Below are positions 40,971 through 47,782 of a stretch of 64,000 nt of DNA, in pieces (position 1 is the first letter of the stretch; each line of letters starts with the position of its first letter). The notes below the pieces were generated by a model, which was given only the letters and a program-made list of their open reading frames with translations, had not been told where the DNA came from and made no database searches. This DNA is from Alphaproteobacteria bacterium (GTDB lineage: Bacteria; Pseudomonadota; Alphaproteobacteria; SMXP01). A program made the translations under genes and the position numbers. The stretch is from the NCBI GenBank assembly GCA_028285305.1, contig JANQPV010000075.1, positions 1-64,000 of the forward strand. Reading direction: 5' to 3'.

Positions 40971-41987
40971 TCACCCCCCAACCTGCACCCGGTAAAGGTC
41001 GCGGCCCAACTGCTCTGTGTTGATCTCCACATCCAGAAACATCTGGATCACTTCCACATTGGTGGTGAAGTGCAGCGTCGGCTCTTGGGTGGTGAAACGC
41101 CCGCCCGCGCCCATGGCCATGGGCAAGAGCAATTGATCCGCCAGGTGAGGACCCACGGCGGCGCCCGACTTGAGGAACGTCTTCACCTCTTTGGCCAGAT
41201 CTTCCGCCACCGCCTCGGCGCTCTTGCGCGGTTGACCGTAACCGGCAAAGACTTCGCATCCGTTCTCGAACTTCATTCGCACCAGGACCGCATTGCCGGG
41301 CCCGGCCGCATCCGGCGTCCGGAGCTCGACGTCGCCCTCAGACAAGGCGAGCTTTTGTTTCATCACTTTCAGCTCCCGCTTGGCGATGTCGCCCGGCAAG
41401 TTTGCCACCATCGCCTCAATGGAGAGATCGACAAGATCGCCGCGCTCCACATGATCGAGTGCCATAAAGTCATCCGACGGCTGAACGGCCGCCGACCAGG
41501 TCCCGCCGCCCGCCGGATAAAACCCATGGCGCTCCAACTCAGGCTCCACCTGGACGCCCATCTGCGCTAGCAGAGGCAAAAAGCCCTCGGCGAGTGTGTG
41601 GTAACAGGGTGCGGTGGGGTTATGGGTGCCGCCGGTCAGATGCACCGTCGATGGCGCGTCGCCGCTGATCAGCGCCGGCAGGATTGTTTGGAAAACCAGG
41701 TTGCTGCTCCCGGCGGTTCCTACGGAAAAGGCAAAGTTCCCGCTCACCAAATCGCCGGGCGTAAAGGTAAGGGCGCTGGCGCCGATGTCCGCTCCCTCCG
41801 CATGACCGCCGCACACGGCGACCGCCGCCTGGACGCACGTCAAGTGTTGCCGCATCAGCCCGGGCTTCTTGCGGTTGGCTCTGATCTTCTCGATACGGAA
41901 CGGCTGACCCGTCACGGCGGAGAGCGACAAGGCCGTGCGCAGCACTTGTCCGCCGCCTTCGCCCATAGAGCCGTCAATGGTGATCAT
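40971..41987 (-). CDS. rtcA: RNA 3'-terminal phosphate cyclase
   Basis: RtcA converts RNA 3'-phosphates to 2',3'-cyclic phosphates using ATP and can adenylylate 5' ends. The 338-residue protein has the family start (GSMGEGGGQVLRTALSLS), the RANRKKPGLMRQHLTCVQA motif and the catalytic His segment (HLADQLLLPMA). It is downstream of rtcB in the rsr-array-rtcBA operon. Together they can rebuild broken RNA ends. Confidence 0.96.
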   Translation of the reverse strand: MITIDGSMGEGGGQVLRTALSLSAVTGQPFRIEKIRANRKKPGLMRQHLTCVQAAVAVCGGHAEGADIGASALTFTPGDLVSGNFAFSVGTAGSSNLVFQTILPALISGDAPSTVHLTGGTHNPTAPCYHTLAEGFLPLLAQMGVQVEPELERHGFYPAGGGTWSAAVQPSDDFMALDHVERGDLVDLSIEAMVANLPGDIAKRELKVMKQKLALSEGDVELRTPDAAGPGNAVLVRMKFENGCEVFAGYGQPRKSAEAVAEDLAKEVKTFLKSGAAVGPHLADQLLLPMAMGAGGRFTTQEPTLHFTTNVEVIQMFLDVEINTEQLGRDLYRVQVGG

Positions 41988-42117: not shown

Positions 42118-43350
42118 TCACCCCTTCACGCACACGATCTGGCGCAGGGTGTGCACCACTTCGACCAGATCTTTTTGTGCCTCCATGACCGCGTCGATGT
42201 CTTTGTAGGCCGCCGGCGTTTCATCGATCACGCCTTCGTCCTTCCGGCACTCCACGTGTTTGGTCGCCTCGATATGCTCTTCCAGCGACACGCGCTTCTT
42301 GGCTTCCGTCCGCGACATCACCCGGCCGGCCCCGTGGGAGCAGGAGTGAAAGCTCTCGGCATTCCCCAGTCCACGGACGATATAGGACCGCGCGCCCATG
42401 GATCCCGGGATAATCCCCATCGACCCTTTGGCCGCCCGCACAGCGCCTTTCCGCGTGACAAAGATGTTTTCGCCGAAATGGTTTTCTTTGGTCACATAGT
42501 TGTGGTGACAGTTGACCGCCTCTACGTCCGCATCGAACGGCTTGGAGATCACCTCCCGCGCCGCCGCGATGAGGTTGCGCATCATCACTTGCCGGTTTGT
42601 CATGGCAAAGGCCTGGGCCCAACCGACCGCTTCCACATAGTCGTCGAAATGGTCGGTCCCTTCCGGAAAGTAAGCCAGGTTGATGTCCGGCAAGTTGATG
42701 AACCACTTCTCCATGTCTTTTTTGGCAAGCTCGATAAAGTGCCGGCCGATGGCGTTGCCCACACCCCGGGACCCGGAGTGCAGCATGAACCAGACCCGGT
42801 CCTCTTCATCGAGACAAACCTCGACAAAGTGGTTGCCCGTACCGAGCGTGCCCAAGTGCACGACGTTATGGCTTTTTGCCAGTTTCGGGTATTTATCCGT
42901 AATTGTCTTAAAGCCTTCGGCGAGGCCCGCCCAGGCGGTTTCAGTCGCTTTGGGGACTTCGTCCCAAGCGCCTTTGTCTTTTCGGCCTTTCTTATCAACC
43001 GAGATGGACCGTCCGTGGGGGATCGCTTTTTCGATGGCCGACCGCAAAAACCCGAGCGAGTCCGGCAAGTCGTTTGCCGTCAGGCTGGTTTGTGCGGCCA
43101 TCATCCCGCAGCCGATGTCGACGCCGACGGCGGCCGGAATGATCGCTTTCTTCGTGGGGATGACACTGCCGACCGTCGAGCCGATGCCTTTGTGAACGTC
43201 CGGCATCACCGCCACATGGGAGTGAATGAACGGCATTTGAGCGATCGAGCGCAATTGATCCGCCGCGCCCTCATCCACGGGCACGCCTTTGGTCCACATT
43301 TTGATCGGCGCTGCGCCGTCGTCTTTAATGACTTCAATGCTATCGCTCAT
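42118..43350 (-). CDS. rtcB: RNA-splicing ligase RtcB
   Basis: RtcB joins RNA 3'-phosphate or cyclic phosphate ends to 5'-hydroxyls using GTP and a divalent metal. Core motifs are complete: MPDVHKGIGSTVGSVIPT, GVDIGCGMMA, GTLGTGNHFVEV, HSGSRGVGNAIG and the guanylylated histidine motif CSHGAGRVMSRTEAKK. ATG 43350 follows a GGAG site (43362 is an alternative). It is preceded by the Y-RNA array, whose structured transcripts could be substrates or regulators. Confidence 0.96.
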   Translation of the reverse strand: MSDSIEVIKDDGAAPIKMWTKGVPVDEGAADQLRSIAQMPFIHSHVAVMPDVHKGIGSTVGSVIPTKKAIIPAAVGVDIGCGMMAAQTSLTANDLPDSLGFLRSAIEKAIPHGRSISVDKKGRKDKGAWDEVPKATETAWAGLAEGFKTITDKYPKLAKSHNVVHLGTLGTGNHFVEVCLDEEDRVWFMLHSGSRGVGNAIGRHFIELAKKDMEKWFINLPDINLAYFPEGTDHFDDYVEAVGWAQAFAMTNRQVMMRNLIAAAREVISKPFDADVEAVNCHHNYVTKENHFGENIFVTRKGAVRAAKGSMGIIPGSMGARSYIVRGLGNAESFHSCSHGAGRVMSRTEAKKRVSLEEHIEATKHVECRKDEGVIDETPAAYKDIDAVMEAQKDLVEVVHTLRQIVCVKG

Positions 43351-43411
43351 TTTCTTCTCCATCGAAATTCAGCCAGACCCCGGCCGGTCCGGGGCCTGGC
43401 TCCAGATATGT

Positions 43412-43475
43412 GCCGCGACGAGACTTGAGTGAAACAGTACAGTTTTGGCTATGTAGTTCCACCCACATTCGCGGC
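43412..43475 (-). ncRNA. Y-RNA-like module 6 (simple hairpin)
   Basis: On the minus strand GCCGCGA at the 5' end pairs with TCGCGGC at the 3' end (7 bp). The 5' side carries GAATGT-N5-GAACTACAT, as in the five other modules, and the 3' side CTCGTCGC. The apical part includes AAAC-loop-GTTT. It is the last module before rtcB, with no tRNA-like domain, similar to YrlB-type Y RNAs. Recognised by internal comparison, not by a covariance search. Confidence 0.75.
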
Positions 43476-43524
43476 GCCTGGTGAGGGGCAAACGATCGTG
43501 ACGATTTAGACGCCATCGGCGTCC

Positions 43525-43597
43525 GGCGACAAGACGACTATGCCCAGCAGGAGTCGAACCTGACAGGGCGCGCAATGTAGTCCGGTCTGCATTCCTT
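43525..43597 (-). ncRNA. Y-RNA-like module 5 (T-arm only)
   Basis: The minus strand carries GAATGC-N5-GGACTACAT and, at the 3' side, CTTGTCGCC. The distal part is a T-arm mimic, CAGG-TTCGACT-CCTG (43548-43562), stacked on a GCCC/GGGC helix (43566-43569 with 43542-43545). There is no D-arm or acceptor stem. The base stem is weak (GG/CC plus mismatches), so this could be a decayed copy. Confidence 0.7.
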
Positions 43598-43627
43598 ACT
43601 CGATCTGCCTACCTCTCAAATTGAGTT

Positions 43628-43763
43628 GGGCGACAAGGTTATCTAACGAAACATCCTGCTCTACCTCTGAGCTACGGGTCCCGAATGTAAATGTTGGACC
43701 CGGCGGGACTCGAACCCGCGACCTGGCGAGTGACAATCGATGTAGTTCCGTCCGCATTCGCCC
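43628..43763 (-). ncRNA. Y-RNA-like module 4 with permuted tRNA-like domain (YrlA type)
   Basis: On the minus strand GGGCGA pairs with TCGCCC at the base. After GAATGC-N5-GAACTACAT come a T-arm (GCGGG-TTCGAGT-CCCGC, 43703-43719), acceptor strand CGGGTCC (43696-43702), a 14-nt cap, acceptor strand GGACCCG (43675-43681; seven Watson-Crick pairs) and a D-arm (GCTC-AGAGGTA-GAGC). Thus the parts of a tRNA occur in permuted order. The anticodon-stem position is poorly paired here, unlike module 3. The 3' side has CTTGTCGCC. Confidence 0.85.
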
Positions 43764-43788
43764 TAAAGTCTAATAGTCTCCTTTATTT

Positions 43789-43890
43789 CCCCGCCAAGCG
43801 AGCTCTGCGAGCGCCGAGCGGGGATCCATATTGACCTCCGAAGCCTTTTCACTCTTCCATATGGATCCCCGATCAAGTCGGGGATCGAGG
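43789..43890. repeat. CCCCGC...GCGGGGATCC hairpin repeat inside the Y-RNA array (copy 1)
   Basis: This unit contains CCCCGC (43789) pairing with GCGGGG (near 43818), followed by a GGATCCATAT...ATATGGATCC inverted pair and CCCCGAT...ATCGGGG-type stem (43865-43886). It sits between modules 3 and 4. A close relative lies at 44260-44347 between modules 1 and 2. Confidence 0.65.
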
Positions 43891-43917
43891 AATATTTTTC
43901 AGCTCACAAACTGAGTA

Positions 43918-44115
43918 GAGGCGACAATGAGGCCTGCTCCGTCGAAGACGGATGAAACGCTTGAGAAGCGTTTCACAGGCCGAATGATTGCGAAACATCT
44001 GCCACTTGCTCTACCGACTGAGCTACGGGCCCATAGAAAAGGTGCTGGACCCGGCAGGACTCGAACCTGCGACCCAGTGGTTAGGGATCGATGTAGTTCC
44101 ACAGGCATTCGCCTC
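43918..44115 (-). ncRNA. Y-RNA-like module 3 with complete permuted tRNA-like domain (YrlA type)
   Basis: On the minus strand the base stem is GAGGCGA/TCGCCTC. Next to GAATGC-N5-GAACTACAT lies a 79-nt domain (44002-44080) with every tRNA helix in permuted order: anticodon-stem strand CCACT, GGGTC variable loop, T-arm (GCAGG-TTCGAGT-CCTGC), acceptor CGGGTCC, a cap of about 14 nt, acceptor GGGCCCG (one G-U pair), D-arm (GCTC-AGTCGGTA-GAGC), then AGTGG, pairing with CCACT. The rest forms a further branched domain with a 9-bp GAAACGCTT/AAGCGTTTC stem and a TCCGT-CTTCG-ACGGA stem enclosed by GGCCTG/CAGGCC. Confidence 0.9.
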
Positions 44116-44151
44116 GAAATCAGTTTGTTCCTTCTTTCATTTCAACAAGAC

Positions 44152-44236
44152 GGGGACAAGATTGGTAAGACACGTCTTTCCCTTTCGGGTTCTGAGTCGA
44201 ACAGATATAGCCAATGTAGTCCTACCGGCATTCCCC
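44152..44236 (-). ncRNA. Y-RNA-like module 2 (T-arm only)
   Basis: The minus strand starts with a GGGGA/TCCCC base stem and GAATGC-N5-GGACTACAT, with ATTGG/CCAAT closing the inner helix and CTTGTCCCC at the 3' side. The apical part contains TCTG-TTCGACT-CAGA (44191-44205), a stem with a T-loop-like seven-base loop, and a CCC-GAAA-GGG hairpin. No D-arm or acceptor stem is seen. Confidence 0.8.
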
Positions 44237-44259
44237 TAAATCTAGTAACTCCGTCTTTT

Positions 44260-44347
44260 CCCCGCCAAGCAAGCTCTGCGAGCGCTGCGCGGGGATCCAG
44301 TTACGAACTCTTTAGTCACCCGTGTGGATCCCCGGTCAAGCCGGGGA
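44260..44347. repeat. CCCCGC...GCGGGGATCC hairpin repeat inside the Y-RNA array (copy 2)
   Basis: Closely similar to 43789-43890 (CCCCGCCAAGC-AGCTCTGCGAGCGC core and GGATCC), with a GATCCCCGG...CCGGGGA stem at its right end (44326-44347). It separates modules 1 and 2. Confidence 0.65.
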
Positions 44348-44379
44348 CATGTGCGATATATACAGTCCTCAAACAAAAG

Positions 44380-44450
44380 GCCGGGGCGACAAGCGATTGT
44401 GAAACAAGTCAGGTTTCAATCGATGTAGTTCCACAGGCATTCGCCCCGGC
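44380..44450 (-). ncRNA. Y-RNA-like module 1 (simple hairpin, closest to rsr)
   Basis: On the minus strand GCCGGGGCGA pairs perfectly with TCGCCCCGGC (10 bp). The 5' side has GAATGC-N5-GAACTACAT and the 3' side CTTGTCGCC. An apical stem CGATT-GAAAC / GTTTC-AC-AATCG completes a Y-RNA-like fold. CCTTTTGTTT follows the base stem. It lies 20 nt after the rsr stop codon, so it is probably processed from the rsr transcript. Confidence 0.88.
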
Positions 44451-44470
44451 TCTCTATACTCCTTTCTATC

Positions 44471-46024
44471 TTACACTTGGATCCGCTCGATTTCGCGAAC
44501 CCAATAATCAGCATGCGCTTCGCCTTTGGCAAACGCCGCCAGCGTATCGAACACCGCGTCGGTAAACCCGCCGACATTCAAGATGTCGAGGCGGCTTTGC
44601 GCCTGGGCCGTACCGTATGGCGCAATGTCGATGCATGCCAACTTGGCGTGGGGGACGCGCTGTTTCAGCGCTTCCCATTCAGCCATCATGCCGGTCCCAA
44701 GACCTCTGCGGCCGTCCGCCCACGACTGGTTATCGGAAACAAAGACAACCAAATCGGGCTTTGCCCGGGCCTTGTTCAACCGCTCCAAAGCCTTAGAGCA
44801 GTTGGTTCCGCCGCCGCCAAATGCCGCGAGCTTGCGGGCGTTGGTCATGACGGAATCGCGCGCCGACAGGCGAGCCTCATGCACGTGCGTGTCGAACGGC
44901 AACACCAGGGTTGACCGGTTCTTGCGCAACAGAGCCGCCGAAACGAGCGCTGCCACATCCACATACCGGACCGCGGACGTCTGTCCCCGGCGGTATCCGG
45001 TCACCGGCGCGCGCATAGACCCAGAAACGTCCGTGCACACAACCACTCGGCCGTCGATGGCCGGGACGTTCTCAAGGGCGATTTCCATCGCATCTTCAAG
45101 AGCGTCCTGAACCCGCTTAGGCACATCGCCGCCAGCCATGCCGTGCGCCATCATCAACTGGTACGGCATCACCCGCGCCTGAGAGATAGCTTTACGATCG
45201 GCCAGTTTGCGGGCGATCGCCTTGTCCATCCCGCGGACGGAGAAGACGTCGTGCCGGGCAAACGTGCGCAGGTTCATACGAACCATTTGCCATCCACCCC
45301 GTTCCGCGATGGTCGCCCAATGGTCACGCCGAAGCGGCAATTGGGTCAGCATTTGAAACGGAACGTCCGGGATCGGACCGTCACCGGCTTCTTTGAACCG
45401 GATGTAATCTTGAACCGCTTGCGGCAGCAAGTTCACATCGCACGGTTTTCCGATCAGCCAAGCGAACAGCGCGTTCCGGCGCGGATCGTCCGCTTTCGGG
45501 TGGACCATCTTGATGATGTCCGCCAGCGACGGGGATTGCCCGACGGAGGCGTTAATCAACGTCCGGTCCGACGCCCCAAGCAGCCAATTCTGAATCATCC
45601 GCTTCGGGCAAGATCCCAAGGACTTCCGGCCTGTGGCGCCCGACCGCATGATTTGGACAAAAGTCCGCAGCATACGTCCGTTGTCCACAATTTCGCCGAA
45701 CGTGCCAGCGAACAACACGGTATCAAGGCCCGACAGAACGGCCAGCAAGAATGCTGGGGTGTCTTTCATGTAGCCGTAACGCCGCGCGAAGACAGCGGTT
45801 TGCGCAATAAACAACGGCGTCACCGCCGCTGTGGCTTGCAATAGGTCCTCCAGATGCGCAAGGCCATCTGCATAGAACGTATCGCTAAACGTCCCGGTTA
45901 TGGCCAACTGTGCCAGCCGATGGCGTGGGTCGTGGTCATAGGCGGGGCCGCCGGCAAGGTTGACCGTATCGGCAACTGGCGCTGAGCGGCCCCGCAACGG
46001 GACAAACACGGATTTGTTTGCCAT
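44471..46024 (-). CDS. rsr: Ro60-related TROVE/vWA protein (Rsr)
   Basis: Rsr is the bacterial Ro60 orthologue, a ring-shaped RNA-binding protein that holds Y RNAs and misfolded RNAs. The 517-residue protein has a TROVE HEAT-like region (RLAQLAITGTFSDTFYADG, FARRYGYMKDTPAFLLAVL, RLWQ-region equivalents up to ~residue 330) and a C-terminal vWA domain with a MIDAS motif (VCTDVSGSM) and GGGGTNCSKAL. ATG 46024 has GAGGAAG upstream. The gene is first in an rsr-array-rtcBA operon. Confidence 0.95.
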   Translation of the reverse strand: MANKSVFVPLRGRSAPVADTVNLAGGPAYDHDPRHRLAQLAITGTFSDTFYADGLAHLEDLLQATAAVTPLFIAQTAVFARRYGYMKDTPAFLLAVLSGLDTVLFAGTFGEIVDNGRMLRTFVQIMRSGATGRKSLGSCPKRMIQNWLLGASDRTLINASVGQSPSLADIIKMVHPKADDPRRNALFAWLIGKPCDVNLLPQAVQDYIRFKEAGDGPIPDVPFQMLTQLPLRRDHWATIAERGGWQMVRMNLRTFARHDVFSVRGMDKAIARKLADRKAISQARVMPYQLMMAHGMAGGDVPKRVQDALEDAMEIALENVPAIDGRVVVCTDVSGSMRAPVTGYRRGQTSAVRYVDVAALVSAALLRKNRSTLVLPFDTHVHEARLSARDSVMTNARKLAAFGGGGTNCSKALERLNKARAKPDLVVFVSDNQSWADGRRGLGTGMMAEWEALKQRVPHAKLACIDIAPYGTAQAQSRLDILNVGGFTDAVFDTLAAFAKGEAHADYWVREIERIQV

Positions 46025-46192
46025 TTCTCTCTTCCTCTTTGTTAACAAGGCTAAGATGGCGCGATCGGGACAGCATAAAAACAAAAATCGCGAATAGATC
46101 TAAGTATTTGATATTGAATAGAAAAATGGGATGCGCGAGTTTTTAGTGGAGAGAAATTGTATAGATATAAATATAAATATATAAATCTCGAT
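46025..46192. promoter_or_regulatory. Divergent rsr/rtcR control region
   Basis: This 168-bp interval should hold the promoters of both rsr and rtcR. An AT-only tract (TATAGATATAAATATAAATA-type, 46159-46187) precedes rtcR. An imperfect palindrome (TATT-TG-ATAT-TG-AATA, 46105-46120) could be an operator. I searched the rsr-reading strand for GG-N10-GC and found no sigma-54 promoter. Confidence 0.55.
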
Positions 46193-47782
46193 ATGACCAA
46201 AGGAATCGTCGTTATAGGTTTGCTCGGAACGACATTGGATGCGGGCAAATCGCCGGCCCGTTGGAACCGGTGGCGGCCCACCATTTCGCTCTTTCAGCAG
46301 GAAGACATGCTCATCGGCCGGCTGGAGCTTCTCTACGACCGGCGCCACACTAATCTGGCTAAGCATTTGGTCGATGACATCGCGTTGGTCTCGCCGGAAA
46401 CCGAAGTCAGTCTGGTGCAACACAACATCGCCGATCCTTGGGACTTTGAGGAAGTCTACGGCGCGCTGCAAGATTTCGCGTTGGGCTACGAATTCGATCC
46501 GGCGGCGGAAGACTACCTCATCCACATCACCACCGGCAGCCACGTGGCACAGATCTGCCTCTATCTCTTGACCGAGTCGCGCTACCTGCCGGGCCGACTC
46601 CTGCAAACCAGTCCCCCCACCAAGAAAGATCCGGGGCCTGGATCCACCAGCATCATCGACTTGGATCTTTCCAAGTACGACAATTTGGCCCAGCGCTTTG
46701 AAACGGAGCGCGACAACGCTACGTCTTATCTCAAAGGCGGTGTGGAGACCCGCAACAAAGCCTTCAACGCTATGATCGAACGGATCGAACAGGTGGCGAT
46801 CCGATCCGATGCGCCCGTCTTGCTTTTGGGGCCTACGGGCGCGGGCAAATCCCATTTGGCCCAGAGGATCTATGACCTCAAAAAGGCGCGGCACATCGTC
46901 GAGGGCAAATTCGTCAGCATCAATTGCGCCACCATCAAAGGCGAGCAGGCCATGTCCGTCCTCTTCGGTCACAGGCGCGGCTTTGCGGGCGCCGCCACGG
47001 AGCGCCGAGGCCTCTTGCGCGAAGCGGACAAGGGCGTGTTGTTCCTGGACGAGATTGACGAGCTCGGCATGGACGAACAAGCGGTGATGCTGGATGCCAT
47101 CGAGCACGGACGATTTTATGTCCAAGGGTCCGACCGGGAAGCCCAAAGCAACTTCCAACTGATCGCGGGCGCCAATACGGACCTCAGCGCGGCCGTCCGC
47201 GAAGGCCGCTTTCGCGCCGATCTCTTCGCCCGCCTCAATCTCTGGATGTTTCAGTTGCCGGGTCTTGCAGAGCGCCGCGAAGACATCGAGCCCAATCTGG
47301 AGGCGGAGCTGAATAAACTCATGAACCGGGGAGAGAGCAAAATCGCCTTTGCCGCCGATGCCCGCAGGAAATATGTGAAGTTCGCCATAGATCCGTCGAG
47401 CCCATGGTCCGGCAATTTCAGAGACCTTTCGGCCTCCGCGACCCGTATGGCCACCCTGTCGCCCCGCGGGCGCATCACGGCGGGCATCGTCGATGAAGAA
47501 ATCGCTCGGCTCAAATCCCAATGGTCCGCTGGCGAACAAAATGATGATTTCCGCCTCGTGGTAGAGGTATTGGGGGAGGCGCATGCAAGCGACCTCGACC
47601 GCTTCGATCTTGTTCAGTTGGCCGAAGTCATCCGCACCTGCCGGTCGGTCGCCTCCCTCGCCGCTGCCGGCAAGGAGCTTTTTGCCAAGTCCCGCCGGCG
47701 CCGCAAAAGCGTCAACGACTCAGACAGGGTGAAGAAGTACCTCGCCAAATTCGGCCTCTCCTGGGGGGATATTGCAGAGTAG
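46193..47782 (+). CDS. rtcR: RtcR, CARF-domain regulator of RNA repair
   Basis: RtcR normally senses RNA ends through an N-terminal CARF domain and activates rtcBA with sigma-54. The 529-residue protein has that N-terminal region (GLLGTTLDAG, HITTGSHVAQICLYLLTESRYLPGRLLQ), a AAA+ domain with Walker A (LLGPTGAGKSH, near residue 210), Walker B (GVLFLDEIDEL), arginine finger (FRADLFARLNLW) and a C-terminal HTH (SVASLAAAGKELF). The L1 loop is GFAGA (residues ~263-267) instead of GAFTGA, one residue short and without the contact threonine. Confidence 0.95.
   Translation: MTKGIVVIGLLGTTLDAGKSPARWNRWRPTISLFQQEDMLIGRLELLYDRRHTNLAKHLVDDIALVSPETEVSLVQHNIADPWDFEEVYGALQDFALGYEFDPAAEDYLIHITTGSHVAQICLYLLTESRYLPGRLLQTSPPTKKDPGPGSTSIIDLDLSKYDNLAQRFETERDNATSYLKGGVETRNKAFNAMIERIEQVAIRSDAPVLLLGPTGAGKSHLAQRIYDLKKARHIVEGKFVSINCATIKGEQAMSVLFGHRRGFAGAATERRGLLREADKGVLFLDEIDELGMDEQAVMLDAIEHGRFYVQGSDREAQSNFQLIAGANTDLSAAVREGRFRADLFARLNLWMFQLPGLAERREDIEPNLEAELNKLMNRGESKIAFAADARRKYVKFAIDPSSPWSGNFRDLSASATRMATLSPRGRITAGIVDEEIARLKSQWSAGEQNDDFRLVVEVLGEAHASDLDRFDLVQLAEVIRTCRSVASLAAAGKELFAKSRRRRKSVNDSDRVKKYLAKFGLSWGDIAE

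What the first reader, a model, noticed from the sequence alone, without database searches (positions are those of the whole stretch)
43412..44450. An array of six Y-RNA-like modules between rsr and rtcB
Six minus-strand modules in 1.04 kb all contain GAATGY-N5-GRACTACAT and a matching 3' CTTGTCGC-type strand, and most have a complementary base stem. Bacterial Ro60 loci are known to carry one or two Y RNAs (YrlA/YrlB in Salmonella, next to rsr and rtcBA). Six tandem ones of three structural classes within one operon is unusual. The organisation suggests a polycistronic precursor made of Ro60 mRNA, several Y RNAs and the rtcBA mRNA.
Basis: partly seen in the sequence, partly recalled or inferred. 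Interest (0 to 1): 0.95.

Follow-up and report, generated by a model that had tools for sequence, protein, structure and literature searches.

The report
Six-member Y RNA array beside Ro60
Between its Ro60 gene and its RNA-ligase gene this alphaproteobacterium encodes a row of six small "Y RNAs", two of them carrying an inside-out copy of a transfer RNA; such rows prove to be normal in its relatives, about half of which also slip spare transfer-RNA genes into the row.

Summary
GAATGY-N5-GRACTACAT occurs exactly six times in the window, all on the minus strand between rsr and rtcB (0 expected). Five modules have a paired base stem; module 5 does not and may be decayed. Rfam's YrlA model matches five of the six over its full length, all below the curated cut-off (64, 53.7, 33.6, 26.8, 24.4 against 69 bits). 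"Unusual" needs correcting. Arrays are the rule here: 1-8 modules, median 4. The same three structural classes occur at an enteric locus with three modules. Unexpectedly, 25 of the 46 loci (not the window) also hold complete tRNA genes among the Y RNAs, only Asn, Gln, Lys and Pro. The Asn, Lys and Gln copies were checked and are extra to the housekeeping genes. Transcription, processing and Rsr binding are inferred, not shown.

The parts
44380..44450 (-). Y RNA module 1, short hairpin class (s)
   Evidence: RF02553 33.6 bits; fold z -5.0, 9-bp base stem
44152..44236 (-). Y RNA module 2, T-arm-only class (T)
   Evidence: RF02553 24.4 bits; folds with base stem and second helix, z -0.59
43918..44115 (-). 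Y RNA module 3, tRNA-like class (A), with an inserted two-hairpin element
   Evidence: RF02553 53.7 bits; fold z -5.5; tRNA domain closest to the genome's own tRNA-Lys(UUU)
43926..43985 (-). two-hairpin insert in the 3' arm of module 3
   Evidence: fold; single copy in the genome
43628..43764 (-). Y RNA module 4, tRNA-like class (A)
   Evidence: RF02553 64 bits, E 5e-14; 74% identical to module 3 over 96 nt
43520..43600 (-). Y RNA module 5, T-arm-only class, base stem missing, possibly decayed
   Evidence: exact 5' and 3' motifs; no base stem, z +0.9; no RF02553 match
43412..43475 (-). Y RNA module 6, short hairpin class (s)
   Evidence: RF02553 26.8 bits; fold z -3.8
44471..46024 (-). rsr (bacterial Ro60), start taken at the conserved ATG; the open frame reaches 46084
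   Evidence: Pfam Ro60 vWA 3e-10; NF041674 Rsr 2e-21, below its 900-bit cut-off
42118..43362 (-). rtcB RNA ligase
   Evidence: Pfam RtcB 1e-131
40971..41987 (-). rtcA RNA 3'-phosphate cyclase
   Evidence: NF003246 415 bits, over its cut-off
46157..47782 (+). rtcR, divergent activator
   Evidence: NF038308 732 bits, cut-off 650
44255..44352 (.). dispersed palindromic repeat, copy 1 (not part of the Y RNAs)
   Evidence: 5 further matches in the genome, one of them the second copy here
43786..43884 (.). dispersed palindromic repeat, copy 2

Best explanation
The region is a tandem array of bacterial Y RNA genes in an rtcR / rsr-Y RNAs-rtcB-rtcA RNA repair operon. Shown here: the gene order; six copies of the Y core; covariation-supported base stem and second helix; and, in two copies, a circularly permuted tRNA body (T arm, acceptor stem, D arm, no anticodon arm). 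Inferred from work on Salmonella and Deinococcus: when tRNAs are cut, RtcR is activated and the operon is transcribed as one RNA; the Y RNAs are cut out; each binds Rsr (Ro60) through its base stem; the apical domain (plain loop, T arm, or tRNA mimic) decides which partner, such as the exonuclease PNPase or a tRNA-modifying enzyme, is brought to Rsr or kept from it. Having several apical types on one stem would let one Rsr protein form several different particles.
For: Motif count 6 against 0 expected. Full-length RF02553 YrlA matches to five modules, best E 5e-14. Base stem pairing 100/98/98/98/97% at the five inner positions against 100/58/67/92/47% when 3' strands are shuffled among modules, and 100/66/75/95/59% shuffled within a locus; pair types CG 87 / GC 32 and CG 53 / GC 38 / TA 20. 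Second helix total 8.0 against at most 7.56 in within-locus shuffles. Acceptor stem 0.914 against a largest shuffle of 0.626 over 58 tRNA-like modules. rtcR lies divergently upstream of rsr in all 46 loci. PMC7790460 and PMC9879122 describe the rsr-yrlBA-rtcBA operon, its RtcR control and its tRNA-fragment signal; PMC8394870 describes YrlA binding Rsr through its basal stem and PNPase through its tRNA-like domain, and its modification by DusA and TruB.
Against: No RNA-seq or binding data. All matches lie below Rfam's 69-bit cut-off. Module 5 lacks the base stem. Modules 2 and 4 do not fold better than shuffles (z -0.6 and -1.0), so their structure rests on comparison. No sigma-54 promoter is seen in the window or in most relatives.
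Confidence: 0.88

Rival explanations
1. The tRNA-like modules are permuted or split tRNA genes whose halves would be joined by the neighbouring ligase RtcB.
For: T arm, acceptor and D arm are in permuted order, and module 3 is closest to the genome's own tRNA-Lys(UUU).
Against: No anticodon arm; ARAGORN finds no tRNA in the window and a whole-genome tRNA model search does not list the window modules. The body sits on the Y base stem shared with modules that have no tRNA domain.
Confidence: 0.04
2. Only some modules work; the array is a passive product of duplication, with module 5 and the insert in module 3 as signs of decay.
For: m3 and m4 are 74% identical over 96 nt, m1 and m3 share 97% of 30 nt of the 5' strand, and two palindromic repeats lie among the modules. 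Module 5 has no base stem.
Against: Base stems vary strongly but stay paired, even when strands are compared within a locus, so copies are generally under selection; more than one copy is kept in 44 of 46 loci, and one of the two exceptions is a truncated contig.
Confidence: 0.25
3. The tRNA-like modules act mainly as decoys for an anticodon nuclease or for RtcR, rather than as tethers on Rsr.
For: The operon answers to broken tRNAs (PMC7790460), whose authors suggest that YrlA could be a competitive inhibitor; module 3 copies the tRNA-Lys body.
Against: YrlA is not itself cleaved by the Salmonella nuclease (PMC7790460); the mimic lacks the anticodon arm; the resemblance to tRNA-Lys was tested only in the window's genome and is weak for module 4 (40 against 38).
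Confidence: 0.12

Closest known systems
YrlA / YrlB Y RNAs of the Salmonella rsr-yrlBA-rtcBA operon (Rfam RF02553; PMC7790460, PMC9879122)
   Same: Place between rsr and rtcBA, divergent rtcR, base stem with conserved internal loop, permuted tRNA-like domain
   Different: Two named RNAs there, six modules here; T-arm-only class; insert in module 3; scores below the Rfam cut-off; no visible sigma-54 promoter
Deinococcus radiodurans Y RNA / Rsr / PNPase particle (described in PMC7790460 and PMC8394870)
   Same: Y RNA as tether of an Rsr protein
   Different: The tether function was not tested here
Anabaena trn operon and rtcB under TrcR (PMC10272220)
   Same: Stress-controlled extra tRNA genes under the same control as rtcB: the closest known parallel to the tRNA genes in the relatives' arrays
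   Different: Separate loci, no RtcR, and no Rsr or Y RNA described there; and the window itself has no tRNA gene

Membership tests
bacterial Y RNA (YrlA type) | encoded next to a Ro60 (rsr) gene | tested here: met
bacterial Y RNA (YrlA type) | 5' and 3' ends form a base stem, then a conserved internal loop and a second helix | tested here: met
   folds of m1, m2, m3, m6 and covariation over 46 loci; not met by m5
bacterial Y RNA (YrlA type) | at least one member with a tRNA-like domain | tested here: met
   m3 and m4
bacterial Y RNA (YrlA type) | match to RF02553 at the curated cut-off of 69 bits | tested here: inconclusive
   full-length matches at 64 and 53.7 bits, E 5e-14 and 5e-11, below the cut-off; none of 60 genomes of the class reaches it either
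bacterial Y RNA (YrlA type) | bound by Rsr; D and pseudouridine modified; tethers PNPase | not testable with these tools
   needs RNA and protein experiments
RtcR-controlled RNA repair operon | divergent rtcR beside rtcB and rtcA | tested here: met
RtcR-controlled RNA repair operon | sigma-54 (-24/-12) promoter upstream of rsr | tested here: inconclusive
   consensus scan at background level in the window, clear (11 of 12) only in L053, L054 and L061; one crude scan
canonical or permuted tRNA gene | complete tRNA with anticodon arm | tested here: not met
   no anticodon arm in m3 or m4

The most novel reading that the evidence does not exclude
In many Alphaproteobacteria the RNA repair operon is a kit for tRNA damage: one RtcR-controlled transcript carries Ro60, a set of Y RNAs with different heads, an RNA ligase and a reserve of specific, sequence-divergent tRNAs (Asn, Gln, Lys, Pro) that replace tRNAs cut by anticodon nucleases, while the tRNA-mimicking Y RNAs handle the broken ones. 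The window is the Y RNA-rich, tRNA-free form.
Probability: 0.4. Interest if true: 0.85.

Novelty: new variant of a known kind. Interest (0 to 1): 0.58.

Why it matters
Bacterial Y RNAs have been studied mainly in Deinococcus and Salmonella. A clade where one Rsr is served by up to eight Y RNAs of three head types gives a natural series to test what the head does. The reserve tRNA genes found in relatives' arrays point to the damaged molecules themselves (Asn, Gln, Lys, Pro), making the open question of what this operon repairs directly testable.

Tried and rejected
My module finder with loose pairing rules gave 46 background calls in 885 kb against 188 in the arrays, so counts in the report use the motif and structure tests use an anchor chosen without pairing. 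Four ARAGORN tRNA calls (L048 Arg, L091 Ala, L102 ???, L105 Leu) overlap Y modules and were discarded; two irregular ones in L053 (Ser, ???) were not counted. That operon tRNA-Gln has a mutated loop was dropped: the housekeeping Gln of these genomes has the same G37. The Pro pattern search was too noisy to list every housekeeping Pro gene. RF02553 alone is a poor counter of Y RNAs: weak matches ring in 10-13 of 14 control genomes. TROVE in the phylum gave only three genomes and no countable Y motifs. The key Y RNA papers (Chen 2014, Sim 2018 and 2020, Wang 2018) are not held, so what they say about copy number is unverified; from memory, the 2014 paper already implies several Y RNAs per species. 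The antisense open frames across the array (43927-44565 +) are read as chance.

Full report
What is there. On the minus strand the order is rsr (start near 46024, end 44471), six RNA modules, rtcB (43362-42118), rtcA (41987-40971); rtcR (46157-47782) points the other way. The gap from rsr to rtcB is 1.1 kb and holds no convincing protein gene.

What the modules are. Rfam's YrlA model, with no help from this study, matches modules 4, 3, 1, 6 and 2 over its whole length (64, 53.7, 33.6, 26.8, 24.4 bits). All are under the curated 69 bits, but so is every match in 60 genomes of the class. Modules 1 and 6 are short hairpins (class s), 2 and 5 have a T-arm-like hairpin (class T), and 3 and 4 have a T arm, acceptor stem and D arm in permuted order (class A). 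Module 3 has an extra two-hairpin insert, unique in the genome. Module 5 keeps the motifs but has no base stem.

Is the structure real? The set is 46 loci: 26 (one of them, L060, truncated), 19, and the window. I kept the modules with exactly one TTGTC-type anchor after the motif, without looking at pairing. The five inner base pairs are formed in 97-100% of 125 modules. Shuffling 3' strands among modules lowers this to 47-92% at the four variable positions; shuffling only within a locus, which largely controls for relatedness, gives 59-95%. Pairs change type (CG/GC/TA), so the changes are compensatory. The second helix and the acceptor stem behave likewise. Some loci are closely related (for example L038 and L041), so the counts are not independent events.

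How unusual is six? Motif counts per complete locus run from 1 to 8, median 4; six or more in seven loci. Rsr itself is patchy: 6 of 385 genomes of the class and 22 of 346 in one family. Plasmids of Rhizobium, Shinella, Methylosinus and Novosphingobium carry the locus with 2-4 modules by the printed motif. An enteric-type locus on two wastewater contigs labelled as phage has three modules, one of each class. So arrays and the three classes are old and shared.

What the tRNA domains copy. Against 44 tRNAs of the same genome, the body of module 3 is closest to tRNA-Lys(UUU), 47.5 of 55, next Met 42.5; module 4 is only marginally closest to Lys (40 against 38). The Rhodobacteraceae copies have other acceptor stems, so this is not a general rule.

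An unexpected neighbour. In 25 of 46 loci the array also contains complete tRNA genes, in sense and with CCA: Asn-GUU 14, Gln-UUG 9, Lys-UUU 8, Pro-UGG/CGG 8. In the genomes checked they are additional: each has a separate housekeeping Asn and Gln gene, and nearly all a housekeeping Lys gene (not matched by the pattern in G387), with different stems. Most operon Lys copies have anticodon stem ACCGC/GCGGT or close to it instead of ACTGA/TCAGT, and seven of eight have a C-A mismatch at pair 2-71. All eight operon Pro copies have A37 where the window genome's housekeeping Pro has G37. The window has none of these tRNAs. I found no report of this in the held papers, which is a weak negative.

How it likely works. 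In Salmonella, tRNA halves ending in cyclic phosphate activate RtcR and switch on rsr-yrlBA-rtcBA (PMC7790460, PMC9879122). YrlA binds Rsr by its stem and PNPase by its tRNA-like part, and is modified by DusA and TruB (PMC8394870). The simplest reading is the same system with more Y RNAs: one stem for Rsr, several heads for several partners. Gene order, sequence and structure are shown here; transcription, processing, binding and partners are inferred. No sigma-54 promoter stands out in the window.

Verdict. A real array of Y RNA genes, five intact and one doubtful, in a known operon type. Multi-copy arrays are ordinary in this clade; the mixed Y RNA and tRNA arrays of its relatives are the more surprising result.

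Noticed in passing
L042, L044-L050, L052-L055, L059, L092, L093, L095-L102, L104, L107 (rsr to rtcB gap): Complete extra tRNA genes (Asn-GUU, Gln-UUG, Lys-UUU, Pro-UGG/CGG only) interspersed among the Y RNAs, distinct in sequence from the housekeeping copies that were checked.
   Followed up: partly
operon tRNA-Pro of L047, L048, L049, L053, L054, L059, L096, L104: All eight have A37 next to the anticodon; the window genome's housekeeping tRNA-Pro genes have G37.
   Followed up: no
operon tRNA-Lys of L042, L044, L050, L055, L093, L095, L097: A C2-A71 mismatch in the acceptor stem is kept in all seven related copies.
   Followed up: no
L053, 276-430 after the rsr end: Two irregular tRNA-like sequences with damaged anticodon arms, one with a Gln-like acceptor, next to a Pro tRNA.
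   Followed up: no
L211 and L213 (OR851267.1, OR845705.1): Short contigs deposited as Salmonella and Escherichia phage look like enteric chromosome (rsr, Y RNAs, rtcB) and carry a third, T-arm-only Y module beyond yrlB and yrlA.
   Followed up: partly
window 44255-44352 and 43786-43884: A dispersed palindromic repeat lies twice inside the array and matches four other places in the genome.
   Followed up: yes
downstream gene in Rhodobacteraceae loci, such as L042 7751-8797: Those loci carry a divergent RtcB-like protein (25-30% identity) and no recognisable rtcA, unlike the window.
   Followed up: no
window 46024-46157: No sigma-54 promoter is recognisable between rtcR and rsr, although RtcR is expected to need one; L053, L054 and L061 have a clear TGGCACG...TTG site.
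   Followed up: partly
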